DNA of 64,000 bases from the NCBI GenBank assembly GCA_002862125.1, contig PHSP01000003.1:1178001-1242000 (forward strand), given 5' to 3'. Below, in pieces: positions 8,083-51,409 of the stretch (within the stretch, counting starts at the first letter, position 1; the number at the start of each line of letters is the position of its first letter). A program made the translations under genes and the position numbers. The notes below the pieces were generated by a model. That model was given only the letters and a program-made list of their open reading frames with translations. It was not told the origin of the DNA and searched no databases. This DNA comes from Methylobacter sp. KS41. Its GTDB lineage: Bacteria > Pseudomonadota > Gammaproteobacteria > Methylococcales > Methylomonadaceae.

Positions 8083-10199
8083 TTAACCCATCTTCGTGAA
8101 TTCTACTGATAATTTCTTGTTATTTCAATAAGTTAAAATTTTAATTTATCTCAAATGGCACTACATATTTTTTCTTATCAATAATCGTCTTACATTTACC
8201 TATCAGGTCAGGTTTGATACTTAAGGCTGCGTATAGTTGTTTTTGGCGTGTTTCGGCTTGGGTTGTTGTGCGCAGGTGAATGGTCTTATTATCCTCTGTC
8301 GGCAAGGTAATCGTGAGGCGTTGTTGGGTCGACATAATGTTGCGTATGCTGTCCCAGCTTAAATGGATACCCTGCTGCTTGAGTTGATAGCGCAGGGTAT
8401 GCACCAGATGGTAGGCCATTAAAGTAATGAACAAGTGTCCGGTGACGCGTTCTTCTTTATGGTGGAAAACTGGACGTAAGCCGAGGTCGGTTTTCAAGCT
8501 TCTGAACGTGGCTTCGATCTCGGTCAGCATGATATAGGTTGACCACAATTGTTCTTCCGACCAGTCCGGAGTAGTGGTTCTCAGGCAGTAAACTCCGCAG
8601 TGCCGGTCTTTTTGTTCACTTTTGGGTTCACGCTGCCATTCAATACGGATGGCGTTGTTTTTCGCGTCATCAGCAATGACTTCAATGCGGTAGTCTTGCG
8701 CGACGCGGCTGTTTTTTTCGCGCAGCCGGCCAATGCGTTCGAGTATTTTCGCGTAGTTTTTGATCGTGCCTTTTTTGTCCAAACCGGCATGGAGCTTGTC
8801 GAGCCCCTCTTCCAGACGAACGTGGAAGCGGTTGCGGATGGCCTGTTCTTTTTTGGCTTTTTGATCGGAGTGGCAATAGAGCCGGGTTTCCCCGGTTTCT
8901 GCATCGATTGTGCGGTAAACGCTGACTTTGCTCTGTCCGGTTTCCCTAACCAGTACGGCATTATCCTGGTCTCTGGGATCTTGTAGGTAGCGTTCCCGGC
9001 TGACCACCAGGTAAAGATAACCGCGCGCGCTTAACCAGGCGAGATTGTCAGCGCTGGCAATGCCGGCATCCATGATAATGACCGGTTTTTCTCCGGCTAA
9101 TGGATTTTTCCCCTGCAGACCGTCCAGCATCAGCGCCAACGTGGCGGGCTCGCTGGCGTTGCCTGGAAAGACCTGGCTGCTGAGCGGGAAGCCATTGCCA
9201 TCCAGAACCAGACCTAAGGTCACCAATGGGCAATCACGGCGTTTTTCTTTGGAGCGGCCGAACCGGGCCTTGGGGTTTTGGGCGCACTGGCCTTCAAAAT
9301 AGGTGTTGGTCAAGTCGTACAAGACGATGCTCCGGTTTAAATCGAATAAGGTCTGCTCCTGAGCACCCAGAAAAGTTTCCAGCGCCGACTGGTGTTTGAG
9401 CAACTTATCGCTGATGGTGTACAGGCGCGTCAGACTGGTGCTGCCGTAGTCATGATCAAGCAGTTCACCCAGGCCGGTACGCGCTTGCAGCCAGTCATGG
9501 GTCTGCAGTTCGCTGCCGGGTGAAATCATGCGCCCTATGATGCTGCCCAATGCCGCCGCGGCATCGATTTTGTTAAAGCCCAGTGCGGCAAGCTTCTGAT
9601 CCAGCTGCAACTGCATGACCGCATGCAACGCCAACGTTTCCCCGCCGATGCTGCGGGCTTGATGGGCTTCGATATGATTAATGCCGACACTATGATAATC
9701 CTGCCCGGGCGTCGCTGCCGCCACCGGTTGCGCCAGTTTCGCGATGATGAGGTCGCTATAGCGCACGGCGGCGGCCTCCAGAAGTTGACCGGCATCATCC
9801 TCTAAATGAAACAACTCGTCTTGGCGCGGCGCTGAGCCTTGCAGAAGCTGTTCAATTCTGGCCGCAAGCAAGGGCCAGTGCGCGGGCTCAATGGCAAAGT
9901 CTTTGCCCAGATTGAGTAGCGTACGTTGCTTGACTTGTGTTCCCTCACGCACGGATTCAACGATCCGATAGGTATAGGAATCTTCGCCATGATCCGCTGT
10001 TTTAGTTTTGGTTCTTCGAATATACATGGCTCTAGCATGGGCGCTATTCCGGAAAAAATCAAGATGCAAACCTAAATGGATGGCACTACAAGAGAGAGCG
10101 AAAAATGAGCATTGATTTTAAAGGGTTTTTTCGAAATGAAAACCGCCGGTAACCAAAAATCAATAACTTAGGGAGACTGGAGTCACGAAGATGGGTTAA
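8083..10199 (-). mobile_element. IS1634-family insertion sequence, complete
   Basis: One large transposase ORF is bounded by a perfect 17-bp inverted repeat: bases 8083-8099 (ttaacccatcttcgtga) and their complement at 10183-10199. I could not find a matching target duplication on the two sides (CAACTG against GCCCGG), which suggests either an old insertion or a rearrangement across the element, consistent with the orphan gene fragment on its left. Confidence 0.85.
8141..10027 (-). CDS. IS1634-family transposase
   Basis: DDE transposase of the IS4 superfamily, 628 residues from the ATG at 10027 (MYIRRTKTK, the usual start of this family); an in-frame ATG at 10069 would add 14 residues. Visible family landmarks are the N-terminal dimer region, the catalytic segment with YDLTNTYFEGQ (first D), IIMDAGIAS (second D) and the helical YREK-like region near the C-terminus (TEIEATFRSLKTDLGLRPVFH, glutamate). 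The frame is intact, so the element may be active. Confidence 0.9.
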   Translation of the reverse strand: MYIRRTKTKTADHGEDSYTYRIVESVREGTQVKQRTLLNLGKDFAIEPAHWPLLAARIEQLLQGSAPRQDELFHLEDDAGQLLEAAAVRYSDLIIAKLAQPVAAATPGQDYHSVGINHIEAHQARSIGGETLALHAVMQLQLDQKLAALGFNKIDAAAALGSIIGRMISPGSELQTHDWLQARTGLGELLDHDYGSTSLTRLYTISDKLLKHQSALETFLGAQEQTLFDLNRSIVLYDLTNTYFEGQCAQNPKARFGRSKEKRRDCPLVTLGLVLDGNGFPLSSQVFPGNASEPATLALMLDGLQGKNPLAGEKPVIIMDAGIASADNLAWLSARGYLYLVVSRERYLQDPRDQDNAVLVRETGQSKVSVYRTIDAETGETRLYCHSDQKAKKEQAIRNRFHVRLEEGLDKLHAGLDKKGTIKNYAKILERIGRLREKNSRVAQDYRIEVIADDAKNNAIRIEWQREPKSEQKDRHCGVYCLRTTTPDWSEEQLWSTYIMLTEIEATFRSLKTDLGLRPVFHHKEERVTGHLFITLMAYHLVHTLRYQLKQQGIHLSWDSIRNIMSTQQRLTITLPTEDNKTIHLRTTTQAETRQKQLYAALSIKPDLIGKCKTIIDKKKYVVPFEIN

Positions 10200-43761: not shown

Positions 43762-44478
43762 CTCCAGGGTATTCATAATGATTTTCTACTTGTGAGAGTT
43801 ATTAAATACCTGCTCCGGACCACAAGCGCGCCAAGCAAAAAATGAGCTGCAATTGCAGCTCATTTTTTGGCGTTAAAAGACTATCAACGTTCCTGTCTTT
43901 TATATCTTTTCTCCGCTAACATTTGCCCACGCTAAATTTGCGTGGATATATACAGGCGGCAAGACGTCTAAAGCCAATGGGCATGGAGGCGGCATTTTTA
44001 AAGACCGTCATGTGCCTTCCACAGGCTCCCATTTATCCTTTCATTTAACCGGCATGATTAACCCCGGACACCGTGGCAGAGCTAAGCCGGTCAGCGCATT
44101 TTTTACCGTGACGGCATTTCCACTGCCACCAGAGCGCAAGGTAAAATCAGTTTTCTGGTAAGTGTTGTACCGGAAAATGAATGGTAAATCAGATATGTGA
44201 TGCAGCGAAGTCCAGGTTAACTGCTTACCAGCAAGTTCTTCGTATATTGGTTTGCGCTTTCTAGTTGTGAAAGTCAATTTGACATTCATTAAAGTAATAG
44301 AGGCGGCTAGTAAACGATTCATATAAAGATGGAAATGCCCAGTATATGAGCATTCCCGACTTACAATGCAAAACTAAAATTGCAGATTAAAAAACCGGAT
44401 AAGGAATTTGTAATTCAATGTTGGTAGAATGCATAAATCAAGTTTTAAAGAAGTAATTAAATTGAATCGTTTAATCAT
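43762..44478. other. Gene-poor region upstream of the Dnd-like operon
   Basis: About 715 bases. The palindromic terminator (43836-43869) closes the phosphoesterase gene. A minus-strand open frame at 44041-44322 lacks a ribosome-binding site and family likeness and is not accepted. The last 150 bases are A/T-rich and must hold the promoter of the Dnd-like operon, but I cannot name a promoter box. Confidence 0.55.
43836..43869. terminator. Perfect palindromic terminator
   Basis: A perfect 34-base palindrome: 17-bp arms, with GAGCTGCAA at the core flanked by A6 and T6 tracts. It lies 75 bases after the phosphoesterase stop and can terminate transcription in both directions, insulating the downstream island. 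Confidence 0.9.
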
Positions 44479-45612
44479 ATGAATCAAACAATAGTTAATC
44501 ATCAAGGGATACTCGCTGATACCTTAATTGATACAAGAGCTATTCTGAGAGAGAATTTTCTCGCAGATAACCGTCCTTGGGTCATTGCTTACTCAGGCGG
44601 TAAGGATTCGACACTGGTATTGCAACTTGTTTATGAAATGCTGTTGTCATTAACGCCAGCGCAACAAAAGCCTGTTCATATCATTTCTTCGGATACTCGT
44701 GTTGAAGCTCCAAATATAGAGGAATACTTAGAAAACAGCCTCATGCAACTTGAGCAACACGCCCAAACTTCCAGGCTGGATTTAACCGTACATCTGGTCA
44801 AGCCGGAAATTGAAGATAGTTTTTGGTCTTTGATCATCGGCAAAGGCTATCCCCCGCCAAACCGCTGGTTCCGCTGGTGTACGACCAAGTTAAAAATCAG
44901 GCCGGTTAGAAAAGTCATCGACGAGATTACTTCCGGGTATGGGAGTGTTATTTTGCTGATTGGCACACGGAAAGCGGAAAGCAGCAACCGTTCTCGCCAA
45001 ATTGAAAATCGGCAGTACAATAGTAGAGGGCTTAATCAGCACACAGAAATTCCCAATGCCCTGGTTTTGCAACCCATTGTTCATTGGACTACCGACGAAG
45101 TCTGGGAATATCTTTTTACTCATAATCCGGCACCTTGGAATTTTGACCACGATCGGATGCTCGCGCTCTACCGACAAGCGAATAGTGGCGAATGCCCTGT
45201 TATTACCGATCTGGATACGCCTTCATGCGGTGGTAGTCGATTCGGTTGTTGGACGTGTACTGTTGTAAAAGAAGATAAGTCGATGAAAGGGTTTATTGAA
45301 ACAGGGGATGAATGGATGGAGCCTTTATATGACTTTAGGTTATGGCTTAGAGACCTCCATGGTAAAGAGGAATTAAGAAATCAATATCGACGTAATGACC
45401 AGCCTGGGCTTGGGCCTTTTAATTCGGAAGCCAGAAAAATGATACTTGAGAAGCTATTAAAAACTGAGCAGGAAGTCGGCAAGCAACTAATTAGTAACGA
45501 AGAACTTCTTAATATTCAAGATATTTGGACGAAGGAATTTGATATTATGCACTCGGCGTTGAGAATCGCTTATAAATATCATCGCAAACCAAAGGAAGTT
45601 ATTGCTGCATGA
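44479..45612 (+). CDS. dndC: DndC-like DNA phosphorothioation PP-loop sulfurtransferase
   Basis: A 377-residue PP-loop ATP pyrophosphatase related to DndC, which activates the DNA backbone or sulfur for phosphorothioate formation. The P-loop is AYSGGKDSTLVLQL near residue 36. Cysteines for an iron-sulfur cluster are WCTTK (near 135) and GCWTCTVVKEDKSM (near 260), the latter highly characteristic of DndC. The family also relates to PAPS reductases, but the DndD and DndE neighbours decide the assignment. It opens a six-gene operon; its stop overlaps the next ATG (ATGA). Confidence 0.88.
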   Translation: MNQTIVNHQGILADTLIDTRAILRENFLADNRPWVIAYSGGKDSTLVLQLVYEMLLSLTPAQQKPVHIISSDTRVEAPNIEEYLENSLMQLEQHAQTSRLDLTVHLVKPEIEDSFWSLIIGKGYPPPNRWFRWCTTKLKIRPVRKVIDEITSGYGSVILLIGTRKAESSNRSRQIENRQYNSRGLNQHTEIPNALVLQPIVHWTTDEVWEYLFTHNPAPWNFDHDRMLALYRQANSGECPVITDLDTPSCGGSRFGCWTCTVVKEDKSMKGFIETGDEWMEPLYDFRLWLRDLHGKEELRNQYRRNDQPGLGPFNSEARKMILEKLLKTEQEVGKQLISNEELLNIQDIWTKEFDIMHSALRIAYKYHRKPKEVIAA

Positions 45613-45821
45613 GCACAGAAACCATCAGCCAATTTATCGAGCGTACTTTATATGAATTAGCGGCCCAACCCGAGTATCGTATACCCACTAGTATTATTCC
45701 TCAGATTGCACACTTGGTAGAAAAATACCCTAACCTTGATGCTAATGGCTCAAAAGCCGATTTAAGTGAAGATCTTACCCTTCTAATTGAGAACGTTAGG
45801 AAGCAAGGAGCATTGGACTAA
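45609..45821 (+). CDS. Small protein of unknown function in Dnd-like operon
   Basis: A 70-residue, mostly helical, acidic protein (MSTETISQFIERTLYELAAQ at the start; two predicted helices separated by a proline-containing loop). It overlaps the dndC-like gene by four bases and abuts the dndD-like ATG with no gap, so it must be co-translated. There is no recognised family; its position between DndC- and DndD-like genes suggests an accessory or scaffold in the modification complex. Confidence 0.72.
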   Translation: MSTETISQFIERTLYELAAQPEYRIPTSIIPQIAHLVEKYPNLDANGSKADLSEDLTLLIENVRKQGALD

Positions 45822-47837
45822 ATGTATTTTAAATCATTGACGATTACCAACTTGTTTTCCTATTATGATGAGTGCCTTTTTGATTTAACGCCTACCGAAG
45901 ACGACAATCGCAATATTGTGGTTATCCAAGGGCGAAATGGCCATGGTAAGACCAGTTTTCTCAATAGCACAAAAATGTTATTTGTTGGCGTATCTGAAGA
46001 AATTCGCCGCACTGCACAACGCAAACGGATACCGTCACCCAAACAATATGTTTGCGGCATTGAAAATGAACTTTGGGGTATCTTGAATCAACAAGCTCGA
46101 CAAGAAGGTAAAACTTCTTGTGGAGTCAAAGCTGTTTGGGAATCGGACGAAGGTGAAGTCATCGCCAGCAGAACATGGGCCATTGACTTCAGCAAACGCG
46201 ATTATGAAGAAAGTGTTAGTGTCATAACACCATTTCAAGGCGAATTAGTGGATGAAAAGGCAGATGAGTTTCTGGATCGCTGTTTGCCAAGAGCCTATAT
46301 ACCTTTTTTCTTTTTTGACGGGGAAGAAGTTCAAGCGTTAGCAGAAGCCAATGACAGCGATGTCATAAAAAAAATGGAGTTGCTACTCAATATAAAGCCT
46401 TTGGAAAATATACAGGATATACTCAAGGACTTACGTCGAAACTGGAATCGCGGAGCGATGAGTTCAGAAAAAAAACTGGAACTGACGGAAAAAGAAAATC
46501 AAAAACGCATCAAAGAACAGGAAAATGCCATCCTTGAACAAAAAATATTAGCGCATAACGCTGATATTTTAGAAATTGAAGATTATCTGGCGGCCATAAG
46601 TCGTAAATTGCGCTTGTTGCGTGGCGCGCCTGAACAGGCTAGCGAAATCAATATTAAATCGCAAATCCAAACCAAACATGAGCAAGTGCAACAGCTAATG
46701 AGAGAAATAGCTGATGCATTTCAACGCGATGCATTTTTGCGAGTTACACCTGATTTACTGGGAAAAACACTCAAAATAACCGAGGCGCTGTTGCAAAAGG
46801 AAAGTGGTACTCAACTTGAATTGCTGGATAGCTTAAAGCAGGAATTGCCCGAGATATTCTCGAAGCCCCCCTATCCAAGCCCTAGGCTGGAACAATCTCA
46901 GGCCTATTTTTATCAACAAAGGATTGTGCGCGTTTTGGAAAGTTATGCAATCACAGAAAACGAAGAAACCGCTTTTCATGTCGATGGCAGCAGAGCCAGG
47001 CAATTATCGAGATTGTTGTCAATTTATCAGCAAATCAATAAGCCGCATCAGGCTTTGCAAAATAAGCTAATTGAAACTCGTGAGTTAAGTCAGGCGATAC
47101 AGAAATTGGAACAGCAATTAAAAGACGCGGGTGATATGTCTAATAAACACCGCTCTGAATTATCGAATCTATTGGGCGAAGAAGAAAACCATAAAGAAAA
47201 ATTGCTTGATCTCAAAGATAGGCTTCGAGCGGCAGACACTCAAAAACAAACTATCGGTAGAGATTGCAGCCGACTGGAAAATGAAATAAATGACTTGGAA
47301 AGTAAAGTTCGTCAAGCGGGTGAAATGGAACGGCAATTAAATTTTACAGAGCGGCTTCGAGCAGCATTAAATGAAGTCAAAGAACGGCTGAAGCGTCAAA
47401 AACGGGCTGAATTGGAGGAAAGTTACAACCGGCATTTAAAACAATTGCTGGATTCCAATAGCTTAATTTATCAGGTAAAAGTGAATGATCATTTTGAGAT
47501 CAGCTACATTGATGCTTCAGGCAATACAATAGGCATGAGTACAGTTTCTGCCGGTATGAAGCAATTATCAGCGACAGCCATGTTATGGGGATTAAAAGAG
47601 GTTTCAGCGCGTGAATTGCCTATTATCATTGATACGCCCATGGGGCGTATTGATCGGCAGCATCAGGATAATTTGTTGCAGCAGTATTACCCTAAAATAG
47701 GCAGGCAAGTTATTTTATTACCGACCGATTCGGAGCTGGATGAGCGTAAACATGCACTCTTGAAACCTTTTATTTATCGGGAATATCACCTATCGAATAA
47801 AACCGGTAAAAAAACGCATATTGAAAGGATAGCGTAA
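45822..47837 (+). CDS. dndD: DndD-like SMC-type ATPase
   Basis: A 671-residue SMC/Rad50-like ATPase. Walker A is IQGRNGHGKTSFLN near residue 36. The characteristic DndD segment FFFFDGEEVQALAE is near residue 163. A long coiled coil fills about residues 190-530, interrupted by a hinge-like region. The signature and Walker B are VSAGMKQLSATAML and IIIDTPMGRID, with the D-loop Q following. DndD provides ATP-driven DNA binding in phosphorothioation. It ends one base into the ATG of the next gene (TAATG), a coupled junction. Confidence 0.88.
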   Translation: MYFKSLTITNLFSYYDECLFDLTPTEDDNRNIVVIQGRNGHGKTSFLNSTKMLFVGVSEEIRRTAQRKRIPSPKQYVCGIENELWGILNQQARQEGKTSCGVKAVWESDEGEVIASRTWAIDFSKRDYEESVSVITPFQGELVDEKADEFLDRCLPRAYIPFFFFDGEEVQALAEANDSDVIKKMELLLNIKPLENIQDILKDLRRNWNRGAMSSEKKLELTEKENQKRIKEQENAILEQKILAHNADILEIEDYLAAISRKLRLLRGAPEQASEINIKSQIQTKHEQVQQLMREIADAFQRDAFLRVTPDLLGKTLKITEALLQKESGTQLELLDSLKQELPEIFSKPPYPSPRLEQSQAYFYQQRIVRVLESYAITENEETAFHVDGSRARQLSRLLSIYQQINKPHQALQNKLIETRELSQAIQKLEQQLKDAGDMSNKHRSELSNLLGEEENHKEKLLDLKDRLRAADTQKQTIGRDCSRLENEINDLESKVRQAGEMERQLNFTERLRAALNEVKERLKRQKRAELEESYNRHLKQLLDSNSLIYQVKVNDHFEISYIDASGNTIGMSTVSAGMKQLSATAMLWGLKEVSARELPIIIDTPMGRIDRQHQDNLLQQYYPKIGRQVILLPTDSELDERKHALLKPFIYREYHLSNKTGKKTHIERIA

Positions 47838-49339
47838 TGGCTGATATTTTTACCAGTAAAGCCGATGAATTAATTATTGATCAGGTTTTACAGTATGGAT
47901 TCTCATCTGCCAAAGCTCCGAAATACACGGTATTGCGTCTTGCTTTGGCGAAATCCTTGCGAATTTCCACTGAACCTAACGATTCATTCGATAAAAATGA
48001 AGAAGATGGGGCTGAATATACCTTAGCTGTTTTGACAGGAAAAACCCGAGATGAAGATATAAATGGCATTCGCGACTTTGATGATGCTATTTGCGCCTTA
48101 TTAAGCACCTACCATAATGAAGATTTATTCAGCAATCTGAAACGGTATAAAACTTTATTGCAAAGGCATATTCGCCGGGGCTTGTATGAAATAAAAACCA
48201 GCTGGAATCGCAGCCACGATTTTATCGTTTACTTGCAGGAAGAATTGTTTGCAGGATTAGACTTTGGTCCGAGCCAACAATCATCAACGGCTATAGAAAT
48301 TATTTTGATTGATGCTTTGAAGGAAATCGGCGTTTCGGCAGAAATAAAAAACAAAATACAAGGGCCGCGAATTGATCGCTACTTTCTTCATCTGCCTAAT
48401 ATTCAACATTTTGACCAATTAAAGCGTGGCTTGGAGAAACTCGCATTTAGGCTAGGTTTACAGCAGGAAGGGGTATTTATTCATTCCACCAGTGAGCCCA
48501 AAGTGGTTGCTATGGATATTCCAAGATCCCGCCAAAACTGGAAAACAATTAATGCCAGCCAAATTCCGAAATGGGCTGAACAAGAAAAAGGTAATGAACG
48601 TTTGACTGTTTGGCTAGGCGAAGATGTATTAGGCAAGCCATTTACATTTGATTTAATTGATACGCCTCACTTATTAATAGCCGGTACGACGGGCAGCGGT
48701 AAAAGTATCTGTTTGCATGCAATTTTGTTGTCCTTATTGTGGACACAATCTTCGGAAAACTTGCAACTTGCGTTATGTGATCCGAAACAAGTTGAATTAG
48801 CTCATTATGAACATATTCCGCATTTATATGGAAAAGGCGTTGTTCACCTGATTACTGATGTTATGGAACTATTGGAGCAATTAGTAGATGAAATGGAACG
48901 ACGGAATCAACTATTGCGAGAAGCGGGCGTAAGCAATCTGACCGAAGCAATACAACAGCGCAAATTACAATTACCTCGTATTGTTGTGGTCGTCGAAGAG
49001 TTGGCTGATTTAATGATGCAATCTCGTGAATTGGAAACACCATTGGTTCGACTTGCCCAAAAAGCCCGTTCTACAGGTATTCATCTAATTCTAGCCACAC
49101 AGCGGCCTGATTCCGTAACATTTAGTGGCTTGTTAAGGACTAATATACCCAGCAGAATTGCTTTACGCGTACAAAAAAATACTGAATCACGGATTATATT
49201 GGATGAAATGGGGGCTGAGCAGTTATTAGGCTCCGGTGATATGTTAGTTAAAATACCTCAAGTGTCAACGAATGCCATTCGTGTACATGGGGCTTACATT
49301 TCGCAGGATGATATTAAATTGTGTCTGCGTAATTTATAA
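47837..49339 (+). CDS. DndE-like domain fused to FtsK/SpoIIIE DNA translocase
   Basis: A 500-residue protein in two parts. The N-terminal 130 residues resemble DndE, the small DNA-binding protein of phosphorothioation: FTSKADELIIDQVLQYG, the LRLALAKSLRI helix and LLQRHIRRGLYEI. Residues about 260-500 are an FtsK/SpoIIIE motor with Walker A GTTGSGKSICLH, a Walker B variant VVVVEELADLMM (EE in place of DE), and ATQRPDSVTFSGLLRTNIPSRIA, the FtsK sensor region. The gene starts at the stop of dndD. Stand-alone DndE is about 110-120 residues, so this is a fusion, not a normal DndE. The DndE assignment rests on eye alignment and position. Confidence 0.8.
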   Translation: MADIFTSKADELIIDQVLQYGFSSAKAPKYTVLRLALAKSLRISTEPNDSFDKNEEDGAEYTLAVLTGKTRDEDINGIRDFDDAICALLSTYHNEDLFSNLKRYKTLLQRHIRRGLYEIKTSWNRSHDFIVYLQEELFAGLDFGPSQQSSTAIEIILIDALKEIGVSAEIKNKIQGPRIDRYFLHLPNIQHFDQLKRGLEKLAFRLGLQQEGVFIHSTSEPKVVAMDIPRSRQNWKTINASQIPKWAEQEKGNERLTVWLGEDVLGKPFTFDLIDTPHLLIAGTTGSGKSICLHAILLSLLWTQSSENLQLALCDPKQVELAHYEHIPHLYGKGVVHLITDVMELLEQLVDEMERRNQLLREAGVSNLTEAIQQRKLQLPRIVVVVEELADLMMQSRELETPLVRLAQKARSTGIHLILATQRPDSVTFSGLLRTNIPSRIALRVQKNTESRIILDEMGAEQLLGSGDMLVKIPQVSTNAIRVHGAYISQDDIKLCLRNL

Positions 49340-49350
49340 AGGAGCAGCAA

Positions 49351-50547
49351 ATGGCAAACGACTTGTTAATTTACCAATTTCATCCGTTATATTTATCGCT
49401 AGAGCATGTTGGACCTTTTCAAGATGAACCTTACGAAGTTGATTTTACCGATAAAAATAATCAACCTTGCAACTTCTTCTTGTTGGTGTCGAAAAATGGT
49501 TCCGGAAAAACAACTATTTTGGATACTATGTCCTGCTTACTGGGCTTGCTTGGACAAACTGAGCCTAAACAATATGACTTGGAGGATTTAGACAAAGGCA
49601 TTGGACGAGCCCAGCTTGATCTAAAACTCCGTGTTTATTGGCAAGGAAGCGATCATCATCTGGTGTTGTCTGTTTTGGCCGGCAATTTTAGCAACGATTT
49701 ATCGCTGAAAGTATGGGCCAATGAAGAGTTACAAATCCATAGCGCAACAAGCTGGCACCGCATGGGCTTTGTTGGGCAACAAAGCGGACTGCCTTTGAAA
49801 CCATTAGCCACTCATAAGTCTGATGATTTCGTCGGTGATTTGTTGGCTGCTATCCTATTTAATGTTGGTAGTTCACCGAGTAGTTTTGGTGAAAGTACAT
49901 TTTCTTTTCCAACAACACTGAGCTTTTCGGCTTATCGTGATATTCCCCAAATTAGAATGTCTGGAGATTTAGCACAGCCTCGTTCGATTACCAAACCACA
50001 ATATTGGGGTTACAGCCCAGTACATTGTTTTTCCGCACATAATGAAACCTGGAATTATTCCCTGGATAATCTTTTAGTTTGGTTGAAATGGCTGGAGGAC
50101 GGACGTTTTGAAAAAGCCCGCGAATATATAAACAAACATGTTTTTGATGGCTCAAGTAAATTTTTGAAAGACGTGGATCGGCCGACCTTGGAAGCCATTG
50201 TGCGCACTGGGGATAATGAACCTAACGATCACCGGCTTGATCGCTTGAGTAGCGGTGAAAAAAATCTGATGCAATTATTTTTGCGTATAGGTGCACACCA
50301 AACTAAAAATACCATTTTGCTGATTGATGAATTTGATGTGCATTTACATATCAGGTGGCAATACCGCTTGTTTTATGCGCTAAAGGCGTTAGCTGCGCGT
50401 GAAGATGCCAATTTTACTGTGATAGCAACAACACACTCGACGGAAATATTAGAAACATTTGTGGCTGGTTTGGATGTTGACGAAGATGGCTTAACAAAAG
50501 GCGGACACTTGATTAAAAAGGAAATGTTTCATGACGATGAAGAATAA
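49351..50547 (+). CDS. AAA/ABC-type ATPase (RecF/OLD/AriA-like)
   Basis: A 398-residue ABC-type ATPase. Walker A is VSKNGSGKTTILDTM near residue 51; the signature is RLSSGEKNLMQLFLRI and Walker B is LLIDEFDVHLHIRWQYRL; the switch histidine is in ATTHSTEILE. This is the AAA_15/AAA_21 architecture of OLD-family and AriA-like defence ATPases, without a nuclease domain of its own. AGGAG lies just before the ATG, 12 bases after the upstream gene. The downstream DUF4435-like gene overlaps by 17 bases, so the two products probably act together. Confidence 0.85.
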   Translation: MANDLLIYQFHPLYLSLEHVGPFQDEPYEVDFTDKNNQPCNFFLLVSKNGSGKTTILDTMSCLLGLLGQTEPKQYDLEDLDKGIGRAQLDLKLRVYWQGSDHHLVLSVLAGNFSNDLSLKVWANEELQIHSATSWHRMGFVGQQSGLPLKPLATHKSDDFVGDLLAAILFNVGSSPSSFGESTFSFPTTLSFSAYRDIPQIRMSGDLAQPRSITKPQYWGYSPVHCFSAHNETWNYSLDNLLVWLKWLEDGRFEKAREYINKHVFDGSSKFLKDVDRPTLEAIVRTGDNEPNDHRLDRLSSGEKNLMQLFLRIGAHQTKNTILLIDEFDVHLHIRWQYRLFYALKALAAREDANFTVIATTHSTEILETFVAGLDVDEDGLTKGGHLIKKEMFHDDEE

Positions 50548-51409
50548 AGGAAGCTTCAAAAGCTTGGGTAAAGAGTCAATTGTTACAGAATCAACCGCTG
50601 GCATTAAAATTTATCTTGAGTCGACTGACGATCAATACATCCTAAGAAACTGGTTTTCCACGTTTAATTTTTACGACAAACTGAGCTTTGATTCAGTTTC
50701 AGAAACTCGTGGAAATGGAGGTTGCCAACTGGTAAAGAAAAAAGTCGAGGAATCAGAATCAACCGCTTTTGGTATTGTAGACAGGGACGTTCTTTTGTCA
50801 GACCTTGGTTTTCAAGACTCATTATGGTGGGAAATTGACGATGAAGTTTTTTCATCCAGCAAACCCTATGGCGAAAAAATTTTCGTATTGCACCGCTGGG
50901 AGCTAGAAAACTATCTGCTTCATCCTCAGGCTTTAGCGTCATTAATGGCAGATAAAAAGCTTGATGCTACAACTTCACCGACTGACATTGCCAATATGTT
51001 GTTCGACCATGAAGAAAACATGGTAGCCATTACTCTTTTGTCTACTATCGCTACTAAAACAGGAACTGCACTAGCCGGAGGAACTCAACTTCTGAGGGAC
51101 AAAAGCGGTGAAGAATTGAAGGCAGAAATACAAAAGCAATTGTCAGTCCCACAAATTTTTATAGAATCAGAGCAGATAAAAATTGATCGTTTTGCTGAAA
51201 ACGAACATGACCCTATTAAGCGATGGCATAGGTTAAGCCGACTGCTTGATGGAAAAAGGATAATGCATCGGATAGATGATTTGCTTTTTTCTGGCAAAGT
51301 TAAACTAGAATCTGAACGCGGCGTTTTAGCTGGATATATTGCCAAACACAAGTTGATTGATCCCGCTTTAACTGATTGGCTTGAATGGGTTTATTCTTCC
51401 GCAGCGTGA
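50531..51409 (+). CDS. DUF4435/TOPRIM-like protein (AriB-like), putative nuclease
   Basis: A 292-residue protein with TOPRIM-like acidic motifs: IKIYLESTDDQYIL (E, near residue 30), FGIVDRDVLL (DxD, near 80) and RWELENYLLHP (ELEN, near 120). These match the DUF4435 family, which in the PARIS defence system (AriB) is an effector nuclease released by its partner ATPase. It overlaps the upstream ATPase gene by 17 bases and ends the operon. The family assignment is by motif spacing and partner context; the exact family should be confirmed by profile search. Confidence 0.75.
   Translation: MTMKNKGSFKSLGKESIVTESTAGIKIYLESTDDQYILRNWFSTFNFYDKLSFDSVSETRGNGGCQLVKKKVEESESTAFGIVDRDVLLSDLGFQDSLWWEIDDEVFSSSKPYGEKIFVLHRWELENYLLHPQALASLMADKKLDATTSPTDIANMLFDHEENMVAITLLSTIATKTGTALAGGTQLLRDKSGEELKAEIQKQLSVPQIFIESEQIKIDRFAENEHDPIKRWHRLSRLLDGKRIMHRIDDLLFSGKVKLESERGVLAGYIAKHKLIDPALTDWLEWVYSSAA

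What the first reader, a model, noticed from the sequence alone, without database searches (positions are those of the whole stretch)
44479..51409. Six-gene operon: variant DNA phosphorothioation system joined to an ATPase/TOPRIM pair
Seen: overlapping or abutting plus-strand genes for a DndC-like PP-loop protein, a 70-residue protein, a DndD-like ATPase, a DndE-FtsK fusion, an ABC-type ATPase and a DUF4435-like protein. Known: Dnd systems use DndA(B)CDE for sulfur modification and DndFGH for restriction; PARIS uses AriA ATPase with AriB (DUF4435). Inferred: here DndA, DndB and DndFGH are missing and the AAA/DUF4435 pair could be the restriction arm, so unmodified DNA would be sensed by the motor or ATPase and attacked by the TOPRIM-like protein. 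The operon is bounded by a perfect palindromic terminator on the left and chromosomal creA on the right.
Basis: partly seen in the sequence, partly recalled or inferred. Interest (0 to 1): 0.88.

Follow-up and report, generated by a model that had tools for sequence, protein, structure and literature searches.

The report
Sulfur-marking DNA operon with alarm genes
A six-gene bacterial operon joins a machine predicted to mark DNA with sulfur to an ATPase/nuclease pair that resembles a known self-sacrifice antivirus alarm, and the pair turns up again and again with this machine but can also live without it.

Summary
The six genes are real: DndC, a small protein (Sp-DndD family), DndD, a DndE-FtsK fusion, an OLD-type ABC ATPase (A) and a DUF4435/Toprim-like protein (T). 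The set is conserved: A and T follow DndE-FtsK in 19 of 21 other genomes found with the DndE-FtsK N-terminus alone, and distances between the genes correlate at r 0.82-0.95. Of 22 such genomes, DndB is found in 0 and one DndFGH-associated family in 1.

On the A tree seven copies sit apart from the Dnd core, in seven separate places; six of these pairs are full length. In three such loci a predicted phosphorothioate-binding HNH endonuclease lies upstream. I favour a phosphorothioate writer carrying a separable PARIS-like abortive arm (0.5), as published for BREX. T's nearest fold is AriB, weakly; A lies between AriA and PtuA. A phosphorothioate-gated arm stays open (0.27). Nothing was tested at the bench. 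It is a new variant of a known kind.

The parts
44479..45612 (+). C: DndC, PP-loop sulfurtransferase, 377 aa
   Evidence: TIGR03183 355.8 bits, over cut-off; residues 41-44 (GKDS) of the loop and cysteines 134, 239, 250, 257, 260 invariant in 16 aligned rows, window included
45609..45821 (+). S: small protein of the Sp-DndD family, 70 aa
   Evidence: conserved ORF, 8 rows; family PF20306 in 8 of 8 rows at E<=1; S profile matches the C-terminus of DndC in 4 loci
45822..47837 (+). D: DndD, coiled-coil ABC ATPase, 671 aa
   Evidence: TIGR03185 265.5 bits, over cut-off; no CxC or CxxC motif in 20 of 20 rows, window included
47837..49339 (+). EF: DndE fused to an FtsK-type motor, 500 aa
   Evidence: PF08870 and PF01580 over their cut-offs; 14 of 17 rows match DndE and 17 of 17 FtsK at E<=0.01, window included
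47915..48205 (+). DndE domain of EF, residues 27-123
   Evidence: PF08870 match
48578..49108 (+). FtsK motor domain of EF, residues 248-424
   Evidence: PF01580 match
49351..50547 (+). A: OLD-type ABC ATPase, 398 aa, AriA/PtuA-like
   Evidence: PF13304 65.7 bits; PADLOC AriA 1.1e-20 and PtuA 1.8e-15; model pLDDT 84.1, nearest folds PtuA
50531..51409 (+). T: DUF4435/Toprim-like protein, 292 aa, AriB-like
   Evidence: PF14491 under cut-off; PADLOC AriB in 24 of 24 rows; model pLDDT 89.1, nearest fold AriB
50618..50620 (+). E30 of T, predicted Toprim glutamate
   Evidence: invariant in 24 of 24 aligned T, window included; its Toprim role is by analogy
50780..50788 (+). D84-R85-D86 of T, predicted Toprim DxD motif
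   Evidence: invariant in 24 of 24 aligned T, window included; its Toprim role is by analogy

Best explanation
The operon is a phosphorothioate (PT) writer with a built-in, separable abortive-infection arm. DndC, its small partner S, DndD and the DndE-FtsK motor would form the writer: DndE and DndD find sites, the FtsK domain drives movement along DNA, and DndC transfers sulfur supplied by a host IscS-like desulfurase. A and T would form a PARIS-like pair: A holds T inactive and releases it when A senses a phage product, most likely a protein that blocks DNA-marking or restriction systems, and T then cuts host RNA (tRNA in PARIS) or DNA and stops growth. Shown: the genes, their families, conserved order, co-inheritance, no DndB match, and separability of A/T. 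Inferred: PT chemistry, the motor's task, the trigger, the target, and that A/T does not read the sulfur mark.
For: Family assignments. A/T downstream of EF in 10 of 11 other genomes of the order and 9 of 10 of a phylum sample; T searched on its own in the phylum sample gives 10 strong other genomes, 9 of them the EF genomes. Distance correlations r 0.82-0.95, 0 of 2000 permutations as high for each of 9 gene pairs. Seven non-Dnd A copies need seven label changes, all seven forced by well-supported branches; that these are losses is by parsimony. No DndE-FtsK beyond one 20.5-bit FtsK-alpha stretch and no DndD over cut-off in G129, G160, G206; G347 has A/T alone among genes that look like housekeeping ones and no DndD over cut-off. 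HNH proteins with a sulfur-binding domain upstream of A/T where the core is lost. Core without A/T: L027, L088, plasmids L136-L138. T's nearest fold is AriB. PARIS-like pairs are reported as recruited backups in BREX (PMC12839542, passages); PARIS works without a partner restriction system (PMC9122126, passages).
Against: A/T is the only predicted nuclease in the operon, so a writer plus an unrelated alarm leaves the sulfur mark without a reader. In plasmids L134 and L135 diverged A/T-like genes follow a second DndD-like gene and DndE-FtsK, beside a DndC, a DndD-like and a DndE-family gene, which looks like a dedicated add-on reader. A is nearer AriA by sequence for the window protein, about equal over the family and nearer PtuA by fold. 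T does not find AriB by sequence in the PDB; its fold match is weak (E 1.4e-3, TM about 0.43, none at E<=0.001) and its DUF4435 score misses the cut-off. Copies without the core could be in early decay. Two of the 33 tree rows (L089, L106) have long branches and unsure places.
Confidence: 0.5

Rival explanations
1. A/T is a PT-gated effector: the DndD/DndE-FtsK motor scans DNA, meets sites lacking sulfur and activates A, which releases T.
For: Strong linkage and co-inheritance with EF; only predicted nuclease in the operon; in L134 and L135 small protein, DndD-like, DndE-FtsK and A/T-like genes follow a separate DndC/DndD-like/DndE-family set, an arrangement like the Dnd plus PbeABCD pairing discussed in PMC10853773 section 16 (read).
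Against: Seven A copies apart from the core, three with no linked defence gene that I recognised; A/T upstream-neighboured by a predicted PT-binding HNH nuclease in cells without the writer. DndI, which restricts unmodified DNA, is toxic without the writer (PMC11662687, passages).
Confidence: 0.27
2. A/T is an autonomous defence pair whose T cuts DNA, like OLD-family Toprim nucleases, rather than tRNA.
For: OLD Toprim domains rank next after AriB in the fold search; A's nearest folds are PtuA and SMC/Rad50 heads.
Against: AriB, a tRNA nuclease, is the best fold match and PADLOC AriB matches 24 of 24 T.
Confidence: 0.12
3. The core does not make phosphorothioate; it is a DNA-scanning complex that uses the DndC fold for another purpose.
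For: No PT was measured; I came across no tested activity of a DndE-FtsK fusion.
Against: DndC over its equivalog cut-off with its cysteines kept; a TusA-family sulfurtransferase annotated directly downstream of the same core in two plasmids; cysteine-desulfurase-like genes in 21 of 22 genomes, though the search also rings in 14 of 14 control genomes.
Confidence: 0.08
4. A/T and the Dnd genes are chance neighbours, both simply living in defence islands.
For: Defence genes cluster in general (established knowledge).
Against: Same gene order at different chromosomal sites and in distant groups; 9 genomes with both, 1 with each alone and 386 with neither among 397, relatedness not corrected for.
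Confidence: 0.01

Closest known systems
DndD-linked systems with DndE fused to HerA/FtsK (PMC10853773, section 22; small protein PF20306)
   Same: DndE fused to an FtsK-type motor beside a DndD-related ABC ATPase in a subset of PT systems; a small protein family named for Dnd systems
   Different: a term search of its main text finds DUF4435 0, PARIS 0 and Toprim 2 times, neither on a Dnd effector; the nucleases it lists are HKD, HNH, REase, URI, HEPN and PIN
PARIS (AriA ATPase, AriB DUF4435/Toprim; PMC9122126, PMC12409363, passages)
   Same: OLD-type ABC ATPase gene with a DUF4435/Toprim gene; AriB is T's best fold match
   Different: T scores 22.9, below that paper's 27-bit DUF4435 threshold; A is not specifically AriA; here fixed in a Dnd operon
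PARIS-like OLD-ABC/TOPRIM modules recruited to BREX (PMC12839542, section 35 passage)
   Same: the same kind of pair attached to a DNA-modification defence system as a proposed backup
   Different: there BREX; here a Dnd system with near-constant gene order
DndBCDE-FGH and IscS-DndBCDE-DndI (PMC11662687, abstract and passages)
   Same: PT writer plus effector
   Different: no DndB match in 22 genomes, dnd_assoc_3 in 1 of 22, no DUF262-HNH DndI in the operon
PbeABCD (PMC6459918 seen only in a search listing; discussed in PMC10853773 section 16, read)
   Same: small protein, DndD-like ATPase and DndE cognate together with an effector
   Different: no helicase-HKD PbeA in the operon; no CxC motif in D

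Membership tests
Dnd phosphorothioation system | DndC over curated cut-off | tested here: met
   TIGR03183 355.8 vs 290.4 bits
Dnd phosphorothioation system | DndD over curated cut-off | tested here: met
   TIGR03185 265.5 vs 245.85 bits
Dnd phosphorothioation system | DndE | tested here: met
   PF08870 28.0 vs 25 bits as a domain of EF; NCBIfam TIGR03184 not met, 14.3 vs 71.85
Dnd phosphorothioation system | DndA or a replacement desulfurase | tested here: inconclusive
   no DndA over cut-off in 22 genomes; matches under it in 21, but also in 14 of 14 control genomes
Dnd phosphorothioation system | sulfur in the DNA backbone | not testable with these tools
   needs mass spectrometry or iodine cleavage
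DndFGH restriction module | DndFGH-associated family dnd_assoc_3 (TIGR03238) | tested here: not met
   0 in the own genome, 1 of 22 genomes in all, G093; that this family belongs to DndFGH is recalled; the other DndFGH families not tested
PARIS | DUF4435 at the published 27-bit threshold | tested here: not met
   window T 22.9 bits; 20 of 24 rows match at E<=0.01, their bits not shown
PARIS | AAA_15/AAA_21 ATPase at published thresholds (32, 27) | tested here: met
   PF13175 51.4, PF13304 65.7 bits
PARIS | A specifically AriA, not another OLD-type ATPase | tested here: inconclusive
   PADLOC AriA 1.1e-20 vs PtuA 1.8e-15 for the window, best E about equal over 24 rows; PDB profile UvrA 1.7e-12, AriA 3.3e-11, retron Ec83 ATPase 5.9e-11; AriA not among the 50 folds listed
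PARIS | effector with AriB fold and Toprim acidic residues | tested here: met
   AriB best fold match, weak; E30, D84, D86 invariant in 24 rows
PARIS | triggered by an anti-restriction protein; tRNA cleavage | not testable with these tools
   bench work needed
PbeABCD | helicase-HKD effector PbeA in the operon | tested here: not met
   no HKD match and no helicase match over a cut-off in the six proteins (EF has sub-cut-off P-loop matches to DEAD and HerA)
PbeABCD | CxC-clade ABC ATPase | tested here: not met
   no CxC/CxxC in 20 of 20 D; PADLOC PbeC label fits D best but also fits L136's DndD-like protein, which NCBIfam calls DndD over cut-off

The most novel reading that the evidence does not exclude
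A DndE-FtsK motor that patrols DNA for missing sulfur hands its verdict to an OLD-type ATPase that unleashes a Toprim nuclease: a PT-gated abortive system, in which A/T is a general output stage that can be re-plugged into other DNA-mark readers, including sulfur-binding HNH enzymes of opposite polarity and a methylase/Ptu-like system.
Probability: 0.25. Interest if true: 0.85.

Novelty: new variant of a known kind. Interest (0 to 1): 0.62.

Why it matters
Among 3416 taxa whose Dnd writer locus carries a nuclease, only 806 have DndFGH (PMC10853773 section 17, read), so what acts on the sulfur mark in the rest is open. This operon offers a compact, conserved case with one candidate effector. 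The natural experiments, a core without A/T and A/T without a core, tell in advance which deletions should be viable and make the question directly testable. If A/T is an alarm, Dnd joins BREX in carrying an abortive backup; if it is gated by the mark, a new reading mechanism exists.

Tried and rejected
Rejected or unhelpful: A/T as autonomous nuclease against unmodified DNA. PbeABCD membership despite PADLOC's PbeC label. Viral contigs: none of 162 pattern matches encodes a relative of A. T in plasmids by tblastn: no match, although profiles later found diverged T-like genes in L134 and L135 (PADLOC names no family for L135's). An exact empty insertion site was not found: of the 20 creA loci given for 28 matching genomes, I compared 19 (all but the window's own) and none shows the operon or the window's left flank in the up to 1.5 kb held on each side. 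Pattern scan: 15 promoter-like sites, 19.7 expected; 13 terminator-like, 7.4 expected, the palindrome not among them.

Results against my reading: core without A/T in 2 of 21 genomes and in 3 of the 5 plasmid loci opened, of 6 records with a long EF match (the sixth, H5, has the species and coordinates of H4); T under its Pfam cut-off; A not specifically AriA; the L134/L135 arrangement favours the rival; in the tree test 500 of 500 label shuffles are as low, that is, non-Dnd copies are scattered, not clustered.

Rows dropped: three weak partial matches (G612, G363, G493) and a second weak match in the own genome; from the tree, L019 and L083 (A in two frames), L045, L058 and L068 (partial). 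Nine of the 22 loci have the contig lengths of order-set loci and were not counted twice. The 2x2 count takes the 398-genome samples as the same, as their handles indicate.

Full report
What is there. Six plus-strand genes lie at 44479-51409, overlapping, abutting or 11 nt apart. Profiles name DndC, DndD, a DndE-FtsK fusion and an OLD-type ABC ATPase; T matches DUF4435 below its cut-off, and S matches Sp-DndD weakly, better in its relatives. The operon is 40.9% G+C against 46.2% for the window. None of the 12 order genomes with the DndE-FtsK N-terminus, other than the window's own, is in its genus, of which 35 genomes are held; the cassette is sporadic.

Is it a unit? I searched with the DndE-FtsK N-terminus only. 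In the order, 12 of 311 genomes match, one being the window's own; A and T follow EF in 10 of the 11 others. In an even sample of the phylum, 11 of 398 match, again one own; A and T follow in 9 of the 10 others. In some of these 19 loci single genes are interrupted, split over frames or cut by contig ends. T searched in the phylum sample gives 10 strong other genomes, 9 of them the same. Thus, taking the two samples as one, 9 genomes have both, 1 EF only, 1 T only, 386 neither; relatedness is not corrected for. A scan of GTDB contigs with A gave 22 loci; 13 are new assemblies, and in 8 of these EF lies directly upstream, in Desulfobulbaceae (two), Marinobacter, Halochromatium, Dechloromonas, a gammaproteobacterium, Magnetocorallium and Thiorhodococcus; 3 have no EF (L052, L065, L067) and 2 are unresolved fragments (L058, L068). 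Protein distances of C, D, EF, A and T correlate at r 0.82-0.95 over 14-21 loci, with 0 of 2000 permutations as high for each of nine pairs.

What is missing. In the 22 EF genomes (window's included), DndB is found in 0, dnd_assoc_3 in 1 (G093), DndA over cut-off in 0, weaker cysteine-desulfurase-like matches in 21. Other DndFGH families were not searched. On alphaproteobacterial plasmids, genes annotated as DGQHR proteins (two as PT-associated) lie near related cores, so DndB-like regulators may occur there.

The small protein. S scores inside the DndC reading frame in four loci, L062, L063, L088 and L089, with weak Sp-DndD matches there (E 1.8e-4 to 0.054, all under cut-off). Three further long DndC (L082, L084, L087) show no such match. 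This suggests that S works with DndC; it is modest evidence.

A and T. T models well (pLDDT 89.1); the two best PDB folds are AriB chains (E 1.4e-3 and 2.0e-3, probability 1.00, TM 0.41-0.45), then OLD Toprim domains; no match has E<=0.001. E30, D84 and D86 are invariant in 24 of 24 rows. By sequence T finds no AriB in the PDB. A (pLDDT 84.1) finds UvrA, AriA and retron ATPases by profile and PtuA first by fold. So the pair is PARIS-like, not proven PARIS.

A/T without the core. Seven of 33 A copies have no DndE-FtsK beside them. On the tree each sits apart among Dnd-linked copies: seven changes, seven forced by starred branches; L089 and L106 are long branches of unsure place. By parsimony these are seven losses of the link. 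Six of the seven pairs are full length; in L052 T matches only from residue 96. L067, L106 and L052 show no linked defence gene that I recognised, though L052 is followed at a distance by a long ORF that I did not identify. L046 has A/T after a methylase and, by inspection only, a specificity-like protein and a Ptu-like ATPase with a partner that Pfam does not name. L043/L049, L044 and L065 have an HNH_2 protein upstream, adjacent to A in L044 and L065, with two genes between in L049, one a Cap4 nuclease; those of L049 and L065 match the sulfur-binding domain SBDHga1 in the PDB (E 8e-19 and 1e-9), and L044's is 74% identical to L049's. In L044 and L049 a truncated DndC (281 and 273 aa) remains. 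G129, G160 and G206 have no DndE-FtsK N-terminus (one 20.5-bit match in G160 spans only the FtsK-alpha part) and no DndD over cut-off. A full-length relative of the SBD-HNH is in 2 of 27 genomes searched, G129 and G160, and in 0 of the 22 EF genomes; five of these 22 and G046 have weak, HNH-part matches only. This fits the published rarity of SBD-HNH genes beside dnd clusters, under 3.6% (PMC7461809, passages).

Core without A/T. L027 has a HATPase_c_3 and a Methyltransf_35 protein instead; L088 has neither A nor T downstream. Of six plasmid records with a long EF match, I opened five: L136 and L137 have C-S-D-EF followed by a TusA-family gene, in L138 a transposase follows, and none of these three has A/T; L134 and L135 have DndC, a DndD-like and a DndE-family gene, then a second DndD-like gene, EF and diverged A/T-like genes. 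Both DndD-like proteins of L135 miss the TIGR03185 cut-off, and several genes of L134 are split over frames.

How it most likely works. The core looks like a PT writer without DndB and with a motor-borne DndE. A/T is linked to it by selection or by common transfer, yet survives without it, also near an enzyme predicted to bind PT DNA. An alarm that senses phage counter-defence fits both facts; PARIS senses an anti-restriction protein and needs no partner system (PMC9122126, passages), PARIS-like pairs are recruited to BREX (PMC12839542, passages), and phages carry anti-Dnd proteins (JSS1_004, PMC12345140, abstract). The PT-gated rival is weaker but alive, because of the plasmid arrangement and because the operon has no other predicted nuclease.

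Known or new. The DndE-FtsK fusion is published (PMC10853773, section 22, read). I found no mention of a Toprim, DUF4435 or PARIS pair in a Dnd operon in the held library; supplementary files and Krishnan 2020 could not be read, so the link may be recorded there. I file it as a new variant of a known kind.

Noticed in passing
L044 9107-10093 (-), L049 3928-4914 (+), L065 5865-6842 (+): HNH_2 endonucleases, two of them matching a sulfur-binding domain of known structure and the third 74% identical to one of these, lie upstream of A/T where the Dnd core is absent; in L044 and L049 a truncated DndC remains.
   Followed up: yes
own genome, L133 8226-11741 (G000:C3:868000-887000): A second DndD-like ATPase split over two reading frames, a DndE-like ORF and HerA-like ORFs lie after restriction-modification-like genes, suggesting a DndD-DndE-HerA system tied to methylation rather than sulfur. 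Only the DndD-like part rests on profile matches; the rest is by inspection.
   Followed up: partly
L027 4017-6291: In G097 the same core is followed by a HATPase_c_3 protein and a Methyltransf_35 protein instead of A/T, a possible alternative effector pair.
   Followed up: partly
L136 and L137, about 8416-8658: A gene annotated as TusA-family sulfurtransferase directly follows C-S-D-EF on alphaproteobacterial plasmids.
   Followed up: partly
L017 7546-10078, L019, L083, L086: Genes of this operon are interrupted in several genomes: two transposase-like ORFs (istA/istB-like by inspection) inside DndE-FtsK in G081, and split frames in others.
   Followed up: no
window 47837-49339: The FtsK motor's Walker B motif reads VVVEELADL, with glutamate where a Walker B aspartate is expected (recalled); residues E387 and E388 are invariant in the 17 aligned rows.
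   Followed up: partly
window 43837-43868: A perfect 32-base palindrome ending in a T run, present once in the window, about 610 nt upstream of the operon.
   Followed up: partly
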